Source: a virus. Taken from it: a DNA stretch of 21,977 nt. A program made the position numbers and the translations under genes. The DNA lies in IMG/VR virus record IMGVR_UViG_3300034759_000237, positions 1 through 21,977 of that record. One strand, written 5' to 3'. This document shows, in pieces, positions 1 through 18,320 of this stretch; the stretch's first letter is position 1; the number at the start of each line of letters is the position of its first letter. The notes under the pieces were generated by a model that worked only from the letters and a program-made list of their open reading frames with translations, ran no database searches and was not told the DNA's origin.

Positions 1-189
1 GCAACCGGTGCACTACGTCTGCAGTGACCAAATGTGACAGCCAGGGGCTTGAAAAAAGTGCATGTCGAACACGTGTCGTTCATGCGTGTAGGGGTGTATA
101 CTACTAGTATAAAAAGTTTATATGGAAAACAATCGACGCAACATTATCACGCTGAAGTAAGAAGACCACCGTTTTTAAACGGTGGATGA
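1..189 (+). pseudogene. Possible 3' remnant of an IS200/IS605-family tnpB
   Basis: Frame 1 is open from about 28 to a TGA at 187-189 and ends in residues RRPPFLNGG; the same frame is interrupted by a TGA at 25-27. The final codons lie inside a perfect hairpin (166-185). A TnpB stop codon embedded in the right-end hairpin is common in IS200/IS605 elements, and this is the main reason for the call. No catalytic motif or zinc-finger cysteines can be seen because only the tail is in the window. If correct, this is a decayed or 5'-cut fragment next to the CRISPR repeats. The alternative is plain non-coding DNA: a TATA-like AT-rich run (about 108-123) also sits here and could serve as a CRISPR leader promoter. 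Confidence 0.35.
166..185. repeat. Perfect 9-bp hairpin, right-end-like
   Basis: CCACCGTTT (166-174) pairs with AAACGGTGG (177-185) around a 2-nt centre; a folded form would open to a 4-nt or larger loop. Its placement after a GAAGA context and before ATGAAG resembles the subterminal hairpin of IS200/IS605 right ends. It could also act as a terminator-like structure upstream of the CRISPR repeats. Confidence 0.5.
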
Positions 190-210
190 AGTATCTAATG
201 CAAAAATCAT

Positions 211-320
211 ATTCAAAAGCAAGATCCACTAAAACAAGGATTGAAACTCAGAAGCTCAGGACAGTTCGTGTAGTTCTGAAGTGATTCAAAAGCAAGATCC
301 ACTAAAACAAGGATTGAAAC
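211..320 (+). CRISPR. Mini-CRISPR array: two 37-nt repeats, one 36-nt spacer
   Basis: Two identical 37-nt repeats lie at 211-247 and 284-320, separated by a unique 36-nt spacer (248-283). Each repeat begins ATTCAAAAGC and ends ATTGAAAC, the canonical 8-nt crRNA 5' handle of type I-A/I-B and III repeats, so transcription should run on the + strand. ATCC and GGAT inside the repeat can form a short stem. No third repeat follows; 321-356 could be read as a terminal spacer-length segment. No cas genes are in the window, so any crRNA would need host Cas proteins. The repeat resembles Methanosarcina repeats as I remember them, which needs a database check. The spacer has an internal TCAGAA/TTCTGA inverted pair. 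Downstream is the virus terminase operon. Confidence 0.82.
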
Positions 321-373
321 GTCGTTGGATTCGATGATGAAGCAGGAAGCCACCATATGAATAGGGTGGTAGT

Positions 374-583
374 TCACACATCCCTCTCTTTTTGTTTCTC
401 CATGATCTTAGTTGCAATTTCCTCTGCAAGTACATCACTCTTATGCTTGATGCTTTCGTTATCCGAATAATACTTTGCAAGGTAATCAATGGCTCTGCTC
501 TTGCTGCAGCTCTGCTCTTTCATGACACGGTGCACTATTGAAAGTGTTTCCCCGCTGAGGGTAAGGCATTGTTTTGATCTCAT
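374..583 (-). CDS. Small ribbon-helix-helix-like protein
   Basis: Encodes 69 residues. A short strand-like segment (LTLSGETL) is followed by two predicted helices around residues 12-40 (VHRVMKEQSCSKSRAIDYLA), the general pattern of Arc/CopG ribbon-helix-helix DNA-binding proteins, then a charged C-terminal tail rich in Lys and Glu. It is the last gene of the leftward operon, 2 nt after the terminase large-subunit stop codon, so it is probably translated from the same message. A role as a transcriptional regulator or packaging accessory is inference. The CRISPR array lies just beyond its 3' end, and a weak CCACC/GGTGG hairpin (350-354/365-369) sits between them. Confidence 0.7.
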   Translation of the reverse strand: MRSKQCLTLSGETLSIVHRVMKEQSCSKSRAIDYLAKYYSDNESIKHKSDVLAEEIATKIMEKQKERDV

Positions 584-585
584 GA

Positions 586-1911
586 CTACCTCGCTTTGGT
601 TCTGATAAGTTTTGATAAGTCCATTTTCTGCGGTCCAAACTTTGATTTACTGAGCTCCGATATGGCCCATACAAGAGCATCCACCCTATCCGGACTCTTG
701 CATTCACCGGGCACCCACTCACACATTTGATCCTCAAGTGCAGGGAAAGACCCGACGTGATGACATTTCCCTTGTTCATACAGAGCGCTGATAGGTTCAG
801 CCCTGACCTGTTTCCCTCTGCTGGCCCGGACAGACCTGTAAGATACTAGAGGGTCAATTGTCCGAAGAGTATACTCCACCAGCTCGCCGCCGTTATTGAC
901 CTCACCAATGACACTGTCAGCAGAATGCTTGTAATAGGCAGCAATGACTTCTTGGGCCCATTTCTTCGGAGTTGTATGGGTCGTATAATCGCCCAGGACA
1001 TAGTAGTGTTGCTTCTCATCCATTCCAGCGACAACGATCCCTGTATCGTCTGCGGATGATGAGGATGTGACTGCAGGATCCACTCCCACGACTATCCTGA
1101 CCAGCTCTGGAGTTTTCGTTACCCTGTTATCCTCGATCACATCTCTGGTCCAGAGGGCTTCCGGATTGTCGTCAAGGATCTCTGCGTTGAGCTCCTGTCT
1201 CCCCAATCGGGTTCCTTCGTATCTACTGATGATCACGTCGATGAAAGCTGGTGCCAGGTTGGACAGGTTCTCGTAGGTGGACCCTTTGGTCACATGAGTG
1301 CTGGAATCGTTCAGGATGTTCTTGACAAGTGGAATGGGTCTTGGGGTTGTGGTGACGGCCACCCTCGGATCATCTCCAAGTCTCAGGCCAAACTGCAGCA
1401 TGTCCCAGGTTTTTTCTGGATACTTCCAGGCAGCTATCTCATCACACCATGCAGTGTCACATTGAGGACCTCTCAGTCTGTCCGGCTCTTCTGCAGAGAA
1501 CAGAAGGGCCATTGCACCGCTTGGCCATGTCAACCTTCTCTTTGATGGCTCATAGACAGGCTCATTCCAAGGAGGACATACTGAAAGGATCCCGGAATCT
1601 CCCTCTACCATAGTATCCCTGGCATCTGCAGATGTTGGAGCTACAAGGTGAATACGTCTGGCTTTACCGGACTCTACTCTTTCCCGGATCCATTCAGACC
1701 CCACTCGAGTTTTTCCCCATCCTCTGCCCGCACATACTAACCAGTATCGCCAGTTGCCTTCCGGAGCTAGTTGGTTAGGCCTGGCCCAGAACTTCCAGTC
1801 ATACTCCAGCTGGAGGATCTCCTCATCCGTGAGCTCACTGAGGATTTTGTTCCTTTCCGATTCTGGCAGCGATGCTATTGATTCGGCTAGTGATGCGTTC
1901 TCTTGCTTCAG
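586..1911 (-). CDS. terL: Terminase large subunit, apparent CTG start
   Basis: The DNA-packaging motor ATPase and headful/cos nuclease that pumps genomes into proheads. With the CTG at 1911 as start it is 441 residues, normal for the family. The ATPase shows Walker A GRGWGKT at residues 62-68 and Walker B TAWCDE ending at D157-E158. The RNase H-like nuclease shows GVDPA (D278), GEVNNGG (E337) and PDRVDAL (D408/D411). The open frame upstream of Walker A runs back to a TGA at 1918-1920 and has no ATG, GTG or TTG before the GTG at 1704, which lies after Walker A and would destroy the ATPase. CTG 1911 has an ideal ribosome site 7 nt upstream. The 5' end overlaps terS by 77 nt in another frame. 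Confidence 0.93.
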   Translation of the reverse strand: MKQENASLAESIASLPESERNKILSELTDEEILQLEYDWKFWARPNQLAPEGNWRYWLVCAGRGWGKTRVGSEWIRERVESGKARRIHLVAPTSADARDTMVEGDSGILSVCPPWNEPVYEPSKRRLTWPSGAMALLFSAEEPDRLRGPQCDTAWCDEIAAWKYPEKTWDMLQFGLRLGDDPRVAVTTTPRPIPLVKNILNDSSTHVTKGSTYENLSNLAPAFIDVIISRYEGTRLGRQELNAEILDDNPEALWTRDVIEDNRVTKTPELVRIVVGVDPAVTSSSSADDTGIVVAGMDEKQHYYVLGDYTTHTTPKKWAQEVIAAYYKHSADSVIGEVNNGGELVEYTLRTIDPLVSYRSVRASRGKQVRAEPISALYEQGKCHHVGSFPALEDQMCEWVPGECKSPDRVDALVWAISELSKSKFGPQKMDLSKLIRTKAR

Positions 1912-2278
1912 ATATGTTCACCTCTACGTTGTTGATTTGGATGTCAGTGCCTTGCTTGGTGTGACCTTGGATATCCGAGATGAACTTGAGATAGTCCAGC
2001 TCAGTAGTCTTATCCCCTGCAGCTCCCTTACTCTTCTCCTCCAATGTTTTGAGAGCCCTTTGCAGGATGCCGGCCTTTGTAGCTCGTTCATCCAGGAGGA
2101 CAAGTTCGACGACCTTCTCTTTGAACTCCGGAGTATTGTTCCACACATTGATGGTCTGCCGGGTGACTTGACATTCTTTTGCAATTTCGTCCTGTGTCAT
2201 TGTACCCAGAGCCATTAATTTTGCAGCTTTGAGACGCTGGCCTGTCCAATTCCATTTTGTCAGCTTTTGTCCGGACAT
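1835..2278 (-). CDS. terS: Terminase small subunit
   Basis: 147 residues. Small subunits recognise viral DNA and recruit the large subunit. Residues about 20-55 form a clear helix-turn-helix (MALGTMTQDEIAKECQVTRQ, then TINVWNNTPEF), the phage small-terminase pattern in which the DNA-binding domain is N-terminal. The middle is helical and charged, suited to oligomerisation; the C-terminal segment after about residue 110 would contact the motor. It lies directly upstream of and overlaps terL, the standard pair. A GAGGTG site 8 nt before the ATG supports the start. The assignment rests on HTH, size and gene order rather than on a unique motif. Confidence 0.85.
   Translation of the reverse strand: MSGQKLTKWNWTGQRLKAAKLMALGTMTQDEIAKECQVTRQTINVWNNTPEFKEKVVELVLLDERATKAGILQRALKTLEEKSKGAAGDKTTELDYLKFISDIQGHTKQGTDIQINNVEVNISEARERITSRINSIAARIGKEQNPQ
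1919..1924 (-). promoter_or_regulatory. Ribosome binding site deciding a CTG start for terL
   Basis: GAGGTG on the minus strand, 7 nt before the CTG at 1911-1909 and inside the terS coding sequence. It is the only strong Shine-Dalgarno match placed to begin a terL product that retains the Walker A motif. Confidence 0.65.
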
Positions 2279-3256: not shown

Positions 3257-6027
3257 AGGGAGCCCTCCACGAGTCCGGGTTGGTCAGGATGTTTTACAGC
3301 CCGGTTGACATATTTTTGATAGCATTCATGGCAACGGTGTTCTGTCTGGCCATTTATTAGGATAGATTTGTTGAGAGCTGGGGAGGATCCACAGTCTACA
3401 CAATGGGCTTGTGTTTGCTCACCTTCTGTGTCCAATGGACCAGACATCGGTCTTTCGGTGGATATCTTAGCATACCGTCTAATGATATCATTAACTTCAG
3501 TAAACTTGTCAGAAGGCACACTATACCTCTTGCAGTATTCCATTGCCACATGAGTCACATTGAGGTGATTGATGCTCTTTTTGTGTGATGATTCCCATTG
3601 TGGCGCCCAAGCCAACAAGTGTTCCAGCATAGCGGTGTTACCCATATTATCGATATCATGCGGGGGCGCCGATGCGCTGTTACCAGCGATGTTACTACCA
3701 CTGTTACCTCCTTTTTCACTATCAGTCGAACCGCTGATACCACTGATACCCTGTTTTGACTTTTGTGTACGTAAAGAATCAGACTTCTCGGTTTTCACAC
3801 AATTCAGTGTTTTTTGCCGCACTCTATCTATATTGGTATCAGTGGTATCAGTGTGTCTATTGTTATTGTTTATGGAGGTATCAGTGGGGGTATCAGTCGG
3901 GTAACAGTGTGTATCACCCGCATCTAGAGACACCACCGAGTCAAACATTCCAAGGGCGTCGAATTTATCGAGTTTTAGATATGTCTTCAGTGTTTTGTGC
4001 CCCGCAGAATTCTCAACTATTCTTTTTTCAACATAGAATCCCTCAACTTTATGGAGGAGGCCAGCATCTTTGTTTCTGTCCTTTCCATAAATTAGATGTG
4101 ATACTCTACCCACGGATTTCCCCAGAGCCTTGGCGATTTCTTCCCGGGTAGCTTCTCCCCTGCCAGCAAGTACCATACATAGCCGCATTTCCGCATCACT
4201 TAGCTTTAGTCCCTGGTTCCCCGCCCTCCCAGTATATAGTGCCTTGGCATCATTGAAGTCTTGGACTTCTGCTATTAAGGCGCCTTCATGGTCTTTCTGC
4301 CTTTGTCTATGTCGAAGAACGGTATATCCCCTCAGGATATCCAGGAAGATAGAATAATTTCTGCGGTTCCTGGTATCTCTCCATGTAATTCTTTCTACGA
4401 AAGGGATTTTCACAATATAATTGCTTGACTTTATGTCCCGGAGGATCTCTCTGCAGATCAGTACGTTATCGTTCAGGGGTAGGCCAACTTCACCAGATGC
4501 GGCCTTTTTTGACAGGAACTCCACAACCTTTCTATCCTGTTCCTCTGATTCGTCCACGCCCCCGCCGAACTGTCTGTTTAGCAGCTGCAGGCTTTGGTCG
4601 TCGTCCACCGAAGTGAGCCACCAAGATATCCTGGAGGGTATCCTCTTTGTTTCCTCTCTTCGCTTAATATCCAATGTGGTGTATGTGGTTCCCGTCTGAA
4701 AGTTGGAGGTCGCACGCTTGATTACGCCTTCCAGTGTTTCAGATAAATCAATATCATCACAGAAGATGATACTGCCATCCTTCAGCCCCTTCATGTAAAA
4801 AATGGCCTTGTCTGATAGCGTTGTTTCAAAAATCCATTCAGGTGGCACAAGGTGTGCCATGGCTTTGCAGCAGTGTGTCTTTCCTTTACCAGACTCCCCG
4901 CTCACCTTGGGCTGGATGCCGTCCGCGTTTAGAACCGACTGAACGCCAACGGATACTAGTAAGGTCTTAGCAAGTTCGAGGTCCCCCACGTGCAGAGACT
5001 GATGAGTATCAAGGATAAACTGAACTGGATCTCCCCCCTCGGCTATCGCGGCCGCTGCCTCTTTTATTTGAGAATCAATCTCATCGACTCCGTCATCTTT
5101 TTGTGAGATGTATTCTTGTTCCCGCGGATTCACAGGTGCCTTCTCTCTGTCTATATGGAACTGTGATAAGACGGGGTGTGCCTTTATAGACTCGGTTGTT
5201 GCCGTTGCATTGGGGTTGATTTTATCGATCTGGTATGCCGACATTTCCGCATCATAATCATCCATGAAGATTAACATACACAGCAGCATGAGCTCTTGCT
5301 TTGTTGCTCCGTTCCTCGAAAGTTCGGCAAACAGATGAAGTGTCAGCTCTCGACCGGATGCGCCATGGAAAACCGACATGTCCCTAAAATGTGGGTTGCT
5401 CTTTTGGTTATCGGTGAAGTGTGCCTTAAAGAACTTCTGGAAAGTTGGCCTGCATTTGTTTACTTTTGACTCAAGCGAGGACAATGTTTTGGTTACCTCT
5501 TTAATTCTGACCACTGCCTCTTCTGGAAGATGGGGTCTTTCTGTGGGGTTTTTGTTGAACTGATACTTGGCTCCGGAGACATGCTCCGACGGGGTGATCA
5601 CAACATTGGATCCGTTGTTAAGCACTTCAAAACCAAGTGCATGGTGCTTCATAGAATCAATTATAGGTGAATAGTTGAACCATAAATGATCACGCCCGGT
5701 GGTTCTGGACTGAATTACAAAGTCAGTTGTATCAATCCCCTCAAAAATATAGTCCCATATCCCTTTACAGATAAAATCCCGGTCAATCACGGTCACGTCT
5801 GATACTTGACCACATACGTTCCCGATATTGCACCTATTATTTTTAAAGTACTTTACCTTATCCCGGTCGGAGAGTGGTTTATAGTTGCTCCAGTCTTCCA
5901 GAAGTGGCCTTTTGCCTGGGCTGTTTCCATGGTCATCTGGCCTCGAGAGTGGATGAGGACACATGCCTATGCTCTCATAGTAGTCAACTGCTTCCGGAAG
6001 AGACATGTCATTAACTGGAGCAGTCAT
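3253..6027 (-). CDS. Primase-polymerase / ATPase replication protein
   Basis: 924 residues, the main replication enzyme here. N-terminus (about 8-165) matches the bifunctional DNA primase/polymerase (prim-pol) fold: GK-R near 38-40, metal-binding VIDRDF (D82, D84), a histidine in RDHLWF (H114), and GFEVLNNGSNVVITPSEHVS (134-151). A central P-loop ATPase follows: Walker A GESGKGKT (377-384) and Walker B IIFCDD (420-425), consistent with a superfamily-3-like or related helicase. A winged-helix segment spans about 606-670 (REEIAKALGKSVGRVSHLIY). A Thr/Asp/Asn/Ser/Gly-rich linker (about 705-788) contains iteron-like DNA repeats, and a zinc ribbon closes the protein (C876, C879, C899, C902). It probably initiates viral DNA synthesis. 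ATGA overlaps couple it to both neighbours. Confidence 0.9.
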   Translation of the reverse strand: MTAPVNDMSLPEAVDYYESIGMCPHPLSRPDDHGNSPGKRPLLEDWSNYKPLSDRDKVKYFKNNRCNIGNVCGQVSDVTVIDRDFICKGIWDYIFEGIDTTDFVIQSRTTGRDHLWFNYSPIIDSMKHHALGFEVLNNGSNVVITPSEHVSGAKYQFNKNPTERPHLPEEAVVRIKEVTKTLSSLESKVNKCRPTFQKFFKAHFTDNQKSNPHFRDMSVFHGASGRELTLHLFAELSRNGATKQELMLLCMLIFMDDYDAEMSAYQIDKINPNATATTESIKAHPVLSQFHIDREKAPVNPREQEYISQKDDGVDEIDSQIKEAAAAIAEGGDPVQFILDTHQSLHVGDLELAKTLLVSVGVQSVLNADGIQPKVSGESGKGKTHCCKAMAHLVPPEWIFETTLSDKAIFYMKGLKDGSIIFCDDIDLSETLEGVIKRATSNFQTGTTYTTLDIKRREETKRIPSRISWWLTSVDDDQSLQLLNRQFGGGVDESEEQDRKVVEFLSKKAASGEVGLPLNDNVLICREILRDIKSSNYIVKIPFVERITWRDTRNRRNYSIFLDILRGYTVLRHRQRQKDHEGALIAEVQDFNDAKALYTGRAGNQGLKLSDAEMRLCMVLAGRGEATREEIAKALGKSVGRVSHLIYGKDRNKDAGLLHKVEGFYVEKRIVENSAGHKTLKTYLKLDKFDALGMFDSVVSLDAGDTHCYPTDTPTDTSINNNNRHTDTTDTNIDRVRQKTLNCVKTEKSDSLRTQKSKQGISGISGSTDSEKGGNSGSNIAGNSASAPPHDIDNMGNTAMLEHLLAWAPQWESSHKKSINHLNVTHVAMEYCKRYSVPSDKFTEVNDIIRRYAKISTERPMSGPLDTEGEQTQAHCVDCGSSPALNKSILINGQTEHRCHECYQKYVNRAVKHPDQPGLVEGSL
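3675..3909. repeat. Inverted clusters of a 10-bp iteron inside the primase gene
   Basis: The 10-mer GGTATCAGTG occurs on the + strand at 3835-3844, 3844-3853, 3877-3886 and 3889-3898 (last base C), with variant GGTAACAGTG at 3900-3909. Its reverse complement occurs at 3741-3750 and, with one mismatch, 3732-3741; the reverse complement of the GGTAACAG variant occurs at 3699-3708 and 3675-3684. The two clusters face each other around about 3792, with variants outermost on both sides. The right cluster encodes Thr-Asp-Thr and the left encodes Gly-Ile-Ser, so the shared DNA word is not explained by one peptide repeat. This is a candidate replication origin or initiator binding site. Confidence 0.6.
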
Positions 6028-13480: not shown

Positions 13481-13999
13481 TCACCTTGCTATATTGATTC
13501 CCATTAAGTCGATGTACTTTTTTGATGAGTCGGGGGCTAGTGCTGAGATCGAGTCTATGTAAGCATCAACTGTTGAACCTCCGGGCATCTGTTGTTGTAT
13601 TTTCATTGCATAGGATTCAAACCTTAACGTCTGTTCACCCGTTATGCCCGATGTATCGACAGTTACCTTTGTCCATGATGATTGTGCAGAGGTTCGAGTG
13701 AACACCGCTGTACCGCCAATCAATGCTCTGAAATGTGGTGTTCCTGCTGTGTCAACATTAGTATATGTGGCTACCCTATACCAAAACGTGAGTTCATCCA
13801 CATTCGTAAAATCTACTGTTTGTGATATAAACCCCGTTACAGTCCCATACACGCCCGCAGGACCACCAATGGAAGCATAAGTTCTGAACGCCCTGTCTCC
13901 TTCATATATGGAGCCTGTCGATGAACCCGTATTTGCCCCGCTTACCGTCCATCCTGTATTTCCGTCCTCCGCACCGCCGTTGGTCACCCTTTCCATCAT
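13481..13999 (-). CDS. Jelly-roll, carbohydrate-binding-like tail protein
   Basis: 172 residues. The start NGGAEDGNTGWTVSGA is the typical opening of jelly-roll carbohydrate-binding modules (N-G-x-E-x-G...W), followed by alternating beta strands (TVDFTNVDELTFWYRVA, SQSSW-like TSAQSSWTKVTVDTSGITG, QTLRFES, YIDSISA). It probably binds sugars of the host surface (S-layer glycan or methanochondroitin), making it a candidate receptor-binding component. GGTGAG upstream and an ATGA overlap with the previous gene support the start. Ligand is not determinable. Confidence 0.7.
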   Translation of the reverse strand: MMERVTNGGAEDGNTGWTVSGANTGSSTGSIYEGDRAFRTYASIGGPAGVYGTVTGFISQTVDFTNVDELTFWYRVATYTNVDTAGTPHFRALIGGTAVFTRTSAQSSWTKVTVDTSGITGEQTLRFESYAMKIQQQMPGGSTVDAYIDSISALAPDSSKKYIDLMGINIAR

Positions 14000-15321: not shown

Positions 15322-18320
15322 CCTCTGATACCTCTCTGTACCCTGGCCCGTGTCATCCTGCTCTCATAGTCACGCATGAACTGCTCGAAAGGATAGTCCT
15401 TGCTCAGCGTCATGTTCTGGATGATGAGGGTGTTTCCTCCAATGTTGTTGGTCTGACTACTGGCAGTAGCTGCAGCTCCGAAAGATTGGTCGGCTGTAAT
15501 GGGTGGCACCATGCCTGCAATGTCACTCATTCTGCTCCGGACCACCCCTTCAAGGCCCTTGGTAGATTCCAAGATGGGATCCACAAAGAATGCATCCCAA
15601 TTCGGCAGTTTCTTCAATGCTCCCTCTTTTGCAGGACTGAAAGGGAAATAGTTCCTGACGCGGGAGACCACGCGGCTTACCGCGCTTGTGACCTTTGGTG
15701 CAGCTGAGGTTATCCCCCTGGCCAGGTTCGACATGATGGAGGACCCTGCTTTTGCAGCAGTTGAGGCTGCTGAACTGAGAGCACTGGAGACGCTGCTTAG
15801 GGTGCTGGTTACTGTGCTGGTAGTGGACTTGCTTGCGGATGAGCTGCTGCCGGAAGAGCTGGAACTGGAAGAGGATGTACTGCTGGATCTGGATGAGAAG
15901 CTCAGTGCCGAGCTGACCGCAGATGTCAGAGAGGATATTTTCGATTTGATTCCATCTATCAGTGACTGTATCCATGCCGCACCGATATTGTAGAACGTAG
16001 ATACTGCATTAGAGAGGGCCTTGAATATGTTGTTCACAGCATTCTGCAGAGCTGCAACGATGTTGTTCCAGCCGCTTGACCACCCGCTTAGCATGGAATT
16101 CATCGCACCAACTAGATACGAAACTATAGAGGACAGTACCCCGGACAGAGTAGAGTATATCGAATTCAGCACATTGGACACGATGTTTCTCATAGTCCCG
16201 CCTGCAGAAGAGACTGTATTCAATGTCTCACTCATCATCGAAGATATGATAGAGGATATGTTGTTCACTGCATTTTGTAGAGCTGCAACAATGTTGCTCC
16301 AGCCACTTGACCACCCGCTCAGCATAGAGCTCATTGCATTGACAAGGAATGAAACGATAGTGGAGAGTACCCCGGACAGAGTAGAGTATATCGAATTCAG
16401 CACAGTGGATACAGTGTTCCACAGAGCCCCACCTGCAGATGTGACTGTGTTCAATATTCCAGCTGCATAGTTTTGAATCCTGGTCCAGTAATACCCAAGG
16501 TACCATTCTAAAGCTGTATCATACCGATCAAACCATCCGGTAATGATACCAAGCAGTCCGTCTAATATCCCCGTGATATAATCCACAAAGGTGGACACGA
16601 TTATTCCAGCTGTATTCCACGCCCCCGCCCAGTCGCCAGTGATGAGCTGTGCCGCGAGGACAATGAAGTTTCCGATTTGTTCAACAACGTAGGATACTAT
16701 TGAGATGATTGGGGGCAATACTGCCTGCACCACGGAAAGAAGTACTTTGATATGGCTTTCAATCAGCCACATGATAGCAGATGCGATCACACTTACTGCA
16801 GCAGTGATCACGGGACTGTTGTCTGTCCACCACCCACCGAACACTTCGAGTGCATCAGTGACAAACTGTTTGATGAGTTCAATTACGGGAGTAGCGGCTT
16901 CTTTGATAGTGTTGAATGTCTCTTTGACCACGGGGCCGATCTTATCCCAGTTTTTGTATATCACATATGCAGCAAGCGCCAAGGCTGCAAGTGCTATTCC
17001 CACCGGACCGAGTATCACACCTACAACTCCCGAGAGTGTAGCTCCAAGGCCACCTACCACTGCAGTCAGGCCACCAGCTCCCCCAATGAATGTAAGCAGG
17101 CCACCTATCCCGGACATGAGAGTACCAACGACAAGCAGTACCGGACCAACTGCAGCAGCGATTGCTCCCAGTACGACGATGATTTTCAGAACAGGAGTGG
17201 GTATTTTTGACAGCCGCTGTGCAAGTGCTGTCATGCCTTTGACAAGAGGAAGCACTCCCACTGTCACAACGTCGCCCATCGCGATCATCAGTTCTTCCAT
17301 AGCAGACTTCAATTCACGTGCTGCACCACCAGGGCCACCCTGCATGATGTCTGCCATTTCCTGTGCGGCACCACCCGCATTCTCTAATGCCAATGTTTGC
17401 TCCCTGATAGCATCAGTACCTATACTCATCAGGGCAAGCATACCCGGCCCGGCTTCCTGTCCGAACAACTCCATAGCGTCTGCCGTGGATAACCCAGCCC
17501 TGGACAGAGTCTCGAGGATATCCGTGAATGAACGCGTGCTGGGGTCCACGTCTGCAAGGGTAAGGTTGTATTGTTCCAGCACATTCGCTACTCTAGCAGT
17601 GGGGCTTGCCAACCGTGTCATAGCACCTCTAAGAGCAGTACCCGCCCTGCTTCCCTGGATACCCGCATCGGACATCTTACCGATGAGGGATGCGGCCTCT
17701 TCCATTGACATACCCATCGCCGCTGCAAGGGGTGCTGCGTAGGACATTGCCTCACCAAGCTGTTGAATATCGGTGTTGGATGATGCTGCGGCCTTTGCAA
17801 GCACGTCAGCAACTCTCCCTGCCTCTGATGCCTGCAGCCCAAATCCTGTCAGGACATTGGAAGCTATATCAGCAGCTGTGCCCAGGTCGATAGCCCCAGC
17901 GGATGCCAGGTTCAGCATATCATCGGTTGCTGCAAGGATCTCATTCACATTGAATCCCGCCATTGCAAGATACTGCATACCTTCTGCGGCTTCAGATGCT
18001 GAGAAGGCAGTTGTGGAACCCAGTTCCCTGGCAAGTGACCGGAGCTGTTCAAACTCTTCCCCGGTGGCACCGGATACTGCCATCACCTTTCTCATGGAGT
18101 CGTCGAAATCAACTGCAGTCTTATATGAGAGGGCAGCCATACCCACCAGCGGTGCTGTTACTGCCATTGACATGGTCTTGCCGGCCGCAGACATCTGCTT
18201 GCCTGCACTTTGCAGTTTGCCACCGAGCTGGTTGACCTCGTTGCCAACCTCCGCAAATGCCTTCTTGAGCTGGCCAATATCACCAACGATTGATACAACA
18301 AGATTACCGATTGCCGACAT
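15318..18320 (-). CDS. Tail tape measure protein (TP901-type)
   Basis: 1000 residues. Tape measures set tail length and are ejected with the DNA. The N-terminus has a coiled region (NEVNQLGGKLQSAGKQMSAA) and a TP901 core about 55-330 (DFDDSMRKVMAVSGATGEEF, TTAFSASEAAEGMQYLAMAG, GFGLQASEAGRVADVLAKAA). A long hydrophobic Gly/Ala/Val stretch spans about 378-455, suited to membrane passage. A 77-residue unit is duplicated in tandem (16028-16466) and a Ser-rich tract lies at about 807-847. A rule of thumb of about 1.5 angstrom per residue gives a tail near 150 nm (estimate). A large + strand ORF opposite is a shadow. Confidence 0.95.
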   Translation of the reverse strand: MSAIGNLVVSIVGDIGQLKKAFAEVGNEVNQLGGKLQSAGKQMSAAGKTMSMAVTAPLVGMAALSYKTAVDFDDSMRKVMAVSGATGEEFEQLRSLARELGSTTAFSASEAAEGMQYLAMAGFNVNEILAATDDMLNLASAGAIDLGTAADIASNVLTGFGLQASEAGRVADVLAKAAASSNTDIQQLGEAMSYAAPLAAAMGMSMEEAASLIGKMSDAGIQGSRAGTALRGAMTRLASPTARVANVLEQYNLTLADVDPSTRSFTDILETLSRAGLSTADAMELFGQEAGPGMLALMSIGTDAIREQTLALENAGGAAQEMADIMQGGPGGAARELKSAMEELMIAMGDVVTVGVLPLVKGMTALAQRLSKIPTPVLKIIVVLGAIAAAVGPVLLVVGTLMSGIGGLLTFIGGAGGLTAVVGGLGATLSGVVGVILGPVGIALAALALAAYVIYKNWDKIGPVVKETFNTIKEAATPVIELIKQFVTDALEVFGGWWTDNSPVITAAVSVIASAIMWLIESHIKVLLSVVQAVLPPIISIVSYVVEQIGNFIVLAAQLITGDWAGAWNTAGIIVSTFVDYITGILDGLLGIITGWFDRYDTALEWYLGYYWTRIQNYAAGILNTVTSAGGALWNTVSTVLNSIYSTLSGVLSTIVSFLVNAMSSMLSGWSSGWSNIVAALQNAVNNISSIISSMMSETLNTVSSAGGTMRNIVSNVLNSIYSTLSGVLSSIVSYLVGAMNSMLSGWSSGWNNIVAALQNAVNNIFKALSNAVSTFYNIGAAWIQSLIDGIKSKISSLTSAVSSALSFSSRSSSTSSSSSSSSGSSSSASKSTTSTVTSTLSSVSSALSSAASTAAKAGSSIMSNLARGITSAAPKVTSAVSRVVSRVRNYFPFSPAKEGALKKLPNWDAFFVDPILESTKGLEGVVRSRMSDIAGMVPPITADQSFGAAATASSQTNNIGGNTLIIQNMTLSKDYPFEQFMRDYESRMTRARVQRGIRG
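16028..16466. repeat. Tandem 231-bp duplication in the tape measure gene
   Basis: Copies begin at 16028 and 16259, a period of 231 bp (77 codons). A 39-bp stretch is identical in both copies, ending CGAATTCAGCACA, while other parts have diverged. Both encode NSIYSTLSGVLS, then GWSSGW, then NIVAALQNAVNNI. Length change by such units would alter tail length in steps. Confidence 0.85.

What the first reader, a model, noticed from the sequence alone, without database searches (positions are those of the whole stretch)
211..320. Virus-linked mini-CRISPR array without cas genes
Seen: two identical 37-nt repeats flank a single 36-nt spacer next to the terminase operon of a head-tailed virus. Known: mini-arrays carried by archaeal viruses can use host Cas proteins against competing viruses, and solitary viral repeats can act as RNA anti-CRISPRs that occupy Cas complexes. 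Inferred: either role may apply here. The repeat ends in the ATTGAAAC crRNA handle, so host processing is plausible. The spacer has no visible match within this window, so it does not target this virus itself as far as I can read. An assembly junction with host DNA is the main alternative.
Basis: partly seen in the sequence, partly recalled or inferred. Interest (0 to 1): 0.85.

Follow-up and report, generated by a model that had tools for sequence, protein, structure and literature searches.

The report
Virus-carried mini-CRISPR aimed at rivals
A tailed virus of methane-producing archaea carries a one-guide CRISPR array whose repeat is identical to the repeats of its likely hosts and whose guide matches the packaging gene of related viruses, so it probably borrows the host's immune system to keep competitors out.

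Summary
In detail: two identical 37-nt CRISPR repeats (211-247, 284-320) flank one 36-nt spacer (248-283). The array is not an assembly junction. A second IMG/VR contig (27,443 bp; imperfect 187-nt end overlap, so about 27.26 kb and probably circular) carries it between portal and terminase genes. A sister virus with 94% identical terminase lacks only this ~250-bp cassette. The repeat is identical to that of the type I-B CRISPR-Cas locus of Methanolobus psychrotolerans (31 copies) and to an array end in a Methanomethylovorans MAG. The key new result is the spacer's target. It matches 34/36 nt in another virus contig and 32/36 nt in a head-tailed provirus of Methanomethylovorans hollandica that is syntenic with this virus. 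Both sites lie at the same position of an HNH endonuclease gene nested in the intein of the large terminase. Nearly all mismatches are codon-synonymous. The carrier has no such site (best self-match 22/36). The host leader is absent, so the array is probably not self-updating. Best explanation: a viral crRNA loaded into the host I-B Cascade/Cas3 excludes related competitors. This is a new member of the known virus-borne mini-CRISPR class. Expression and interference were not testable here.

The parts
211..247 (+). CRISPR repeat 1 (37 nt, ends in ATTGAAAC handle)
   Evidence: exact match to 31 repeats of Methanolobus psychrotolerans YSF-03
248..283 (+). single spacer (36 nt)
   Evidence: 34/36 to L204:9430-9465(-); 32/36 to Methanomethylovorans hollandica provirus G083:C2:1202894-1202929(+)
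284..320 (+). CRISPR repeat 2, identical to repeat 1
128..378 (.). inserted cassette absent from sister virus L046 (15 nt in its place)
   Evidence: blastn: window 1-127 = L046 5114-4987, window 379-1894 = L046 4971-3456
94..129 (.). 36-nt AT-rich viral promoter-like block, conserved in the empty-site relative and repeated (97%) a second time in the genome upstream of a head gene; on the + strand TTTATATG at 117-124 could fire toward the array, on the - strand TTTTTATA would fire toward the next small gene
   Evidence: sequence; conservation and second copy; promoter role inferred
166..185 (+). perfect hairpin CCACCGTTTTTAAACGGTGG upstream of the array
   Evidence: sequence; fold
350..369 (+). 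hairpin CCACC-N10-GGTGG downstream of the array, followed by a T-rich stretch
   Evidence: sequence; fold
374..583 (-). small ORF (69 aa), last gene before the cassette
   Evidence: conserved in L046
586..1830 (-). terminase large subunit, without intein
   Evidence: Terminase_6N 5e-28, Terminase_6C 2e-15; PHROG terminase large subunit
1835..2278 (-). terminase small subunit, homologous to TerS of both targeted viruses
   Evidence: PHROG terminase small subunit 7e-12; alignment

Best explanation
This is a virus-borne, cas-less mini-CRISPR array that supplies one crRNA to the host's type I-B CRISPR-Cas machinery. The virus infects a methylotrophic methanogen of the Methanosarcinaceae (Methanolobus or Methanomethylovorans). 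A + strand transcript, probably started in the AT-rich viral promoter block (94-129), would be cut by host Cas6b at the two repeats. This would give ATTGAAAC + TCAGAAGCTCAGGACAGTTCGTGTAGTTCTGAAGTG. Loaded into host Cascade, the crRNA would direct Cas3 to DNA of related head-tailed viruses that carry an HNH-containing intein in their large terminase gene, and so exclude them from co-infected or lysogenic cells. Shown here: the array, its place inside the viral genome, the empty site in a sister virus, repeat identity with a host I-B locus, protospacers in two related viruses, absence of a self-target and absence of the host leader. Inferred: transcription, processing, PAM compatibility and interference.
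For: Array real. Internal to virus in a second contig from another IMG record, only 2 differences in the shared 21,977 bases. Empty site in L046. Exact 37-nt repeat in M. psychrotolerans beside Cas8b(TM1802)-Cas7-Cas5-Cas3-Cas6b-Cas1-Cas4. 36 of 37 nt visible and identical at a Methanomethylovorans MAG contig edge. Protospacers 34/36 (L204) and 32/36 (M. hollandica provirus), expected by chance about 1e-7 and 7e-7 under a random-base model. The reversed-pattern control gave no hits in 238 genomes. Mismatches follow codon logic: both L204 mismatches and two of the three codon changes in M. hollandica are synonymous, and the spacer reads YQKLRTVRVVLKC in the HNH frame. The M. hollandica provirus is syntenic with the carrier: portal 53%, head proteins 46-62%, tail 60-66%, tape measure 52%. 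No self-target above 22/36. The spacer has the same sense as the target gene, which fits DNA targeting by type I rather than RNA targeting by type III.
Against: No perfect (36/36) protospacer was found. L204 has a mismatch at spacer position 7, the M. hollandica copy at position 1. No transcript data. The host PAM is unknown: both sites have 5' TTA, but they are homologous, so this is one observation. The host is inferred from the repeat and from the target's host; no host spacer against this virus was found among about 770 + 29 + 139 examined. The + strand promoter is inferred only.
Confidence: 0.74

Rival explanations
1. RNA anti-CRISPR (Racr-like) decoy: the viral repeats are expressed to occupy host Cas6b/Cascade subunits and weaken immunity against the virus itself; the spacer sequence is incidental.
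For: Viruses do encode solitary host-like repeats that inhibit Cas complexes (PMC10651486). A scan here found many virus contigs with one repeat-like 3' end of this class. A repeat identical to the host's would bind host Cas6.
Against: Two full identical repeats with a normal-length spacer make a functional guide, and the spacer has significant, coding-sense matches in two related viruses. SRUFinder in PMC10651486 sets such arrays apart from solitary repeats.
Confidence: 0.1
2. Passive remnant: a host repeat-spacer-repeat unit picked up by recombination, now neither expressed nor useful.
For: No host leader upstream. Only one virus population carries it; the sister L046 does not. Orientation is opposite to the operon. 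No perfect target is known.
Against: Both repeats are still identical to the host consensus with no decay. The target is a relative of the carrier rather than a random element. The array is placed next to a viral promoter-like block.
Confidence: 0.14
3. Assembly or provirus-boundary artefact: host CRISPR sequence joined to the viral contig.
For: The array is 210 nt from the end of this contig, and the contig ends are 127-nt k-mer overlaps with another contig.
Against: A contig from another IMG record has the same array with over 13 kb of viral sequence on each side. Both flanks of the insertion are contiguous in the empty-site sister. No host leader or further spacers are attached.
Confidence: 0.02

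Closest known systems
Virus-borne mini-CRISPR arrays of Saccharolobus portogloboviruses SPV1/SPV2 (Medvedeva et al. 2019, PMC6858448)
   Same: Cas-less array of 1-2 spacers in an intergenic region; repeat matches the host; spacers target close relatives of the carrier near the locus of the array; carrier lacks the target
   Different: Here: head-tailed methanogen virus, type I-B repeat, no host leader (SPV arrays have leaders); target is an intein-nested HNH gene in the terminase; no reciprocal array in the target was seen in the sequence held
Leaderless phage mini-arrays of the Faure et al. comparative analysis (as described in PMC6858448 and PMC11656645)
   Same: No leader, repeats identical to host, spacers against related viruses, target genes close to the array position
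   Different: Archaeal (Methanosarcinaceae) virus; empty-site sister available
Chiyouvirus / Fuxivirus mini-arrays of Bathyarchaeia viruses (PMC10848311)
   Same: Archaeal virus with mini-array; the Chiyouvirus repeat is identical to the host's
   Different: Those arrays had self-targeting spacers or no target found, and virus-encoded Cas2 or type IV-B genes; here a rival target is identified and no cas gene was seen
RNA anti-CRISPRs / solitary repeat units (PMC10651486)
   Same: Host-like repeat in an intergenic region of a viral genome
   Different: Two repeats plus a targeting spacer; not solitary

Membership tests
Virus-borne mini-CRISPR array | 1-3 spacers between CRISPR repeats inside a viral genome, without cas genes | tested here: met
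   no cas gene among window proteins scanned
Virus-borne mini-CRISPR array | repeat identical to that of a host CRISPR-Cas system | tested here: met
   37/37 in M. psychrotolerans type I-B locus; 36/36 visible in Methanomethylovorans MAG
Virus-borne mini-CRISPR array | spacer targets a related virus, not the carrier | tested here: met
   34/36 and 32/36 in two related viruses; best self-match 22/36
Virus-borne mini-CRISPR array, SPV subtype | host-type leader with promoter | tested here: not met
   1-210 does not resemble host leaders that are alike among themselves; the leaderless phage subtype lacks this feature too (PMC6858448)
Virus-borne mini-CRISPR array | crRNA made and interference with the rival | not testable with these tools
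   needs RNA data and infection or transformation assays
RNA anti-CRISPR (Racr, solitary repeat unit) | a single repeat not associated with a second repeat | tested here: not met
   two repeats 73 nt apart
RNA anti-CRISPR (Racr, solitary repeat unit) | inhibits the host Cas complex | not testable with these tools
   no functional data available
Type I-B CRISPR-Cas (host machinery used) | Cas8b, Cas7, Cas5, Cas3, Cas6b beside an array with this repeat | tested here: met
   on L197, array at L197:9080-end

The most novel reading that the evidence does not exclude
The guide is aimed at a mobile element rather than at one virus. It recognises the HNH endonuclease gene nested in a terminase intein, which occurs in at least two different rival viruses. 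One viral spacer would then exclude every rival carrying that homing element and block its spread into the carrier's lineage.
Probability: 0.2. Interest if true: 0.68.

Novelty: new member of a known kind. Interest (0 to 1): 0.55.

Why it matters
Inter-viral warfare with borrowed CRISPR has been worked out mainly in Sulfolobales. This case extends it, with an identified target, to tailed viruses of methylotrophic methanogens, some of whose candidate hosts are in culture (M. hollandica DSM 15978, M. psychrotolerans YSF-03). It comes with a natural empty-site control and a sequenced target provirus, so the hypothesis can be tested directly. It also suggests that leaderless viral arrays can be acquired as a block next to a viral promoter.

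Tried and rejected
The spacer against GenBank phages and PLSDB plasmids gave only chance-level hits. An exact 20-nt spacer seed in IMG/VR found only the twin contig; the target appeared only after a codon-degenerate pattern. Host spacers against this virus (about 770 + 29 + 139) gave no convincing match. PAM inference from host spacers against the fetched loci gave no usable hits. Leader homology: a score with nominal P 0.01 against one of six leaders on shuffling, scattered and not placed at the leader-repeat junction, was judged chance. Bases 321-356 as a second spacer: rejected. tRNA or integration-site reading of the left end: no tRNA found. Assembly junction: rejected. Pfam hits for HNH are individually weak (below gathering), but the HNH motif and 68% identity between the two proteins support the assignment.

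Full report
Observation. The window is a whole IMG/VR record of 21,977 bases. Two identical 37-nt repeats, ATTCAAAAGCAAGATCCACTAAAACAAGGATTGAAAC, lie at 211-247 and 284-320 and flank a 36-nt spacer, TCAGAAGCTCAGGACAGTTCGTGTAGTTCTGAAGTG, at 248-283. Rfam calls both CRISPR-DR7 with 56.4 bits against a cut-off of 37. The stretch after the second repeat is not followed by a third repeat, so this is a one-spacer array.

Is it part of the virus? Yes. The only other IMG/VR contig with the repeat, IMGVR_UViG_3300034521_000267 (27,443 bp), carries the same array at 13,661-13,770. It continues on the far side into a small zinc-finger-like ORF, a holin-sized ORF, and portal, head and capsid genes. Over the shared 21,977 bases the two differ at two positions. 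That contig's ends overlap by 187 nt (186 identical to each other), which makes the genome about 27.26 kb and probably circular or circularly permuted. The window's ends are exact 127-nt overlaps with a 5.5-kb contig that fills the missing portal/capsid stretch. The left edge of the window is therefore an assembly-graph break, not a virus-host border. A sister virus, L046 (IMGVR_UViG_3300040971_000213, terminase 94% identical), is contiguous across the place and has 15 nt where this virus has about 250 nt (window 128-378). The cassette is an insertion between the last small ORF after TerL and an AT-rich promoter-like block.

Whose repeat is it? Among 112 Methanosarcinaceae genomes the exact 37-mer occurs only in Methanolobus psychrotolerans YSF-03, 31 times. 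It stands next to genes for Cas8b (TM1802), Cas7, Cas5, Cas3, Cas6b, Cas1 and Cas4, a type I-B locus. The contig edge of a Methanomethylovorans MAG shows the same repeat over all 36 visible bases. Other Methanosarcina, Methanolobus and Methanomethylovorans genomes carry versions with one to a few changes, mostly near the 5' end.

What does the spacer match? Nothing useful turned up in named phages or plasmids. A search of Methanosarcinaceae genomes with up to 3 mismatches over 27 nt gave one hit, which extends to 32/36. The genome is Methanomethylovorans hollandica DSM 15978, identified through its 285,109-bp plasmid, NC_019972.1. The hit sits in a head-tailed provirus that is collinear with the window virus: portal 53%, head proteins 46-62%, tail proteins 60-66% and tape measure 52% identical. 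Translating the spacer gives YQKLRTVRVVLKC. A codon-degenerate scan of IMG/VR then found one further contig, L204 (IMGVR_UViG_3300035102_000096), with 34/36 identity and both mismatches synonymous. Its small terminase is a close relative of the window's (69% over 295 nt). In both viruses the site lies at the same place in a 322-codon HNH endonuclease ORF nested in an intein of the large terminase. Chance expectations under a simple random-base model are about 7e-7 and 1e-7. The reversed-pattern control found nothing in 238 genomes of the class. The carrier's best self-match is 22/36.

How it most likely works. The spacer is in the same sense as the target genes. A crRNA could therefore not pair with their mRNA but could pair with their template strand, which fits DNA interference by type I-B and speaks against type III RNA targeting. 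Cas6b of the host should process a + strand transcript at the two repeats. A + strand TATA-like element, TTTATATG at 117-124, lies in a block that is conserved in the empty-site relative and repeated elsewhere in the genome. That block also has the right shape for a promoter in the opposite direction, so array transcription from it is inferred. Host leaders share a recognisable sequence that ends at the first repeat. The viral upstream sequence does not have it, so canonical Cas1-Cas2 updating at this array is unlikely. The unit was more probably acquired by recombination with a host array, or it descends from an event that left no leader.

What is and is not known. The combination of host-identical repeats, one spacer, no cas genes, a relative as target, no self-target and an array placed close to the targeted region matches the class described for SPV1/SPV2 (PMC6858448) and reviewed in PMC11656645. 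The missing leader matches the phage examples cited there. PMC10848311 reports archaeal virus mini-arrays without a rival target. PMC10076291 shows that metagenomic viral arrays against other viruses are not rare (about 0.45% of viral elements). The finding is therefore a new member of a known kind. Its particular value is a resolved target, a sister without the cassette and hosts in culture. The spacer target (an HNH gene in a terminase intein shared by two rivals) is unusual and opens a reading in which a mobile element, not one virus, is the object of exclusion. That remains a hypothesis.

Noticed in passing
L204:7831-10545 (-) with nested L204:8769-9737 (-); L193:625-3027 with nested L193:1229-2197; L198: The targeted terminase inteins (PF14890) contain a 322-codon HNH endonuclease ORF in a different reading frame, while the intein/terminase frame stays open all through it. 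Synonymous shuffling of the HNH ORF gave 12-16 stops on average in that frame and never an open one in 2000 trials; observed 0 in both. An out-of-frame, overprinted homing endonuclease inside an intein; a third relative (L198) looks the same. One literature search found no paper holding all four search terms.
   Followed up: partly
L126-L162 (viral contigs): A scan for TANAACAAGGATTGAAAC found over 30 IMG/VR contigs with a single repeat-like unit (many with the preceding ATCCA too), and two isolate-derived records (L132, L147) with a two-repeat mini-array spaced 71 nt: candidate solitary repeats / RNA anti-CRISPRs and mini-arrays.
   Followed up: no
94-129: A 36-nt AT-rich block is duplicated (97%) at a second place in the viral genome, upstream of a head gene, and conserved in relatives: likely a shared viral promoter.
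   Followed up: partly
166-185 and 350-369: The array is bracketed by two hairpins with CCACC...GGTGG stems, absent from the empty-site relative; possible processing or termination elements of the cassette.
   Followed up: no
16025-16224 and 16256-16455: 200-nt direct repeat, 84% identical, inside the tape-measure gene.
   Followed up: no
3690-3750 and 3835-3895: 61-nt inverted repeat, 75% complementary, within the primase/helicase-like gene (Prim-Pol N-terminal domain).
   Followed up: no
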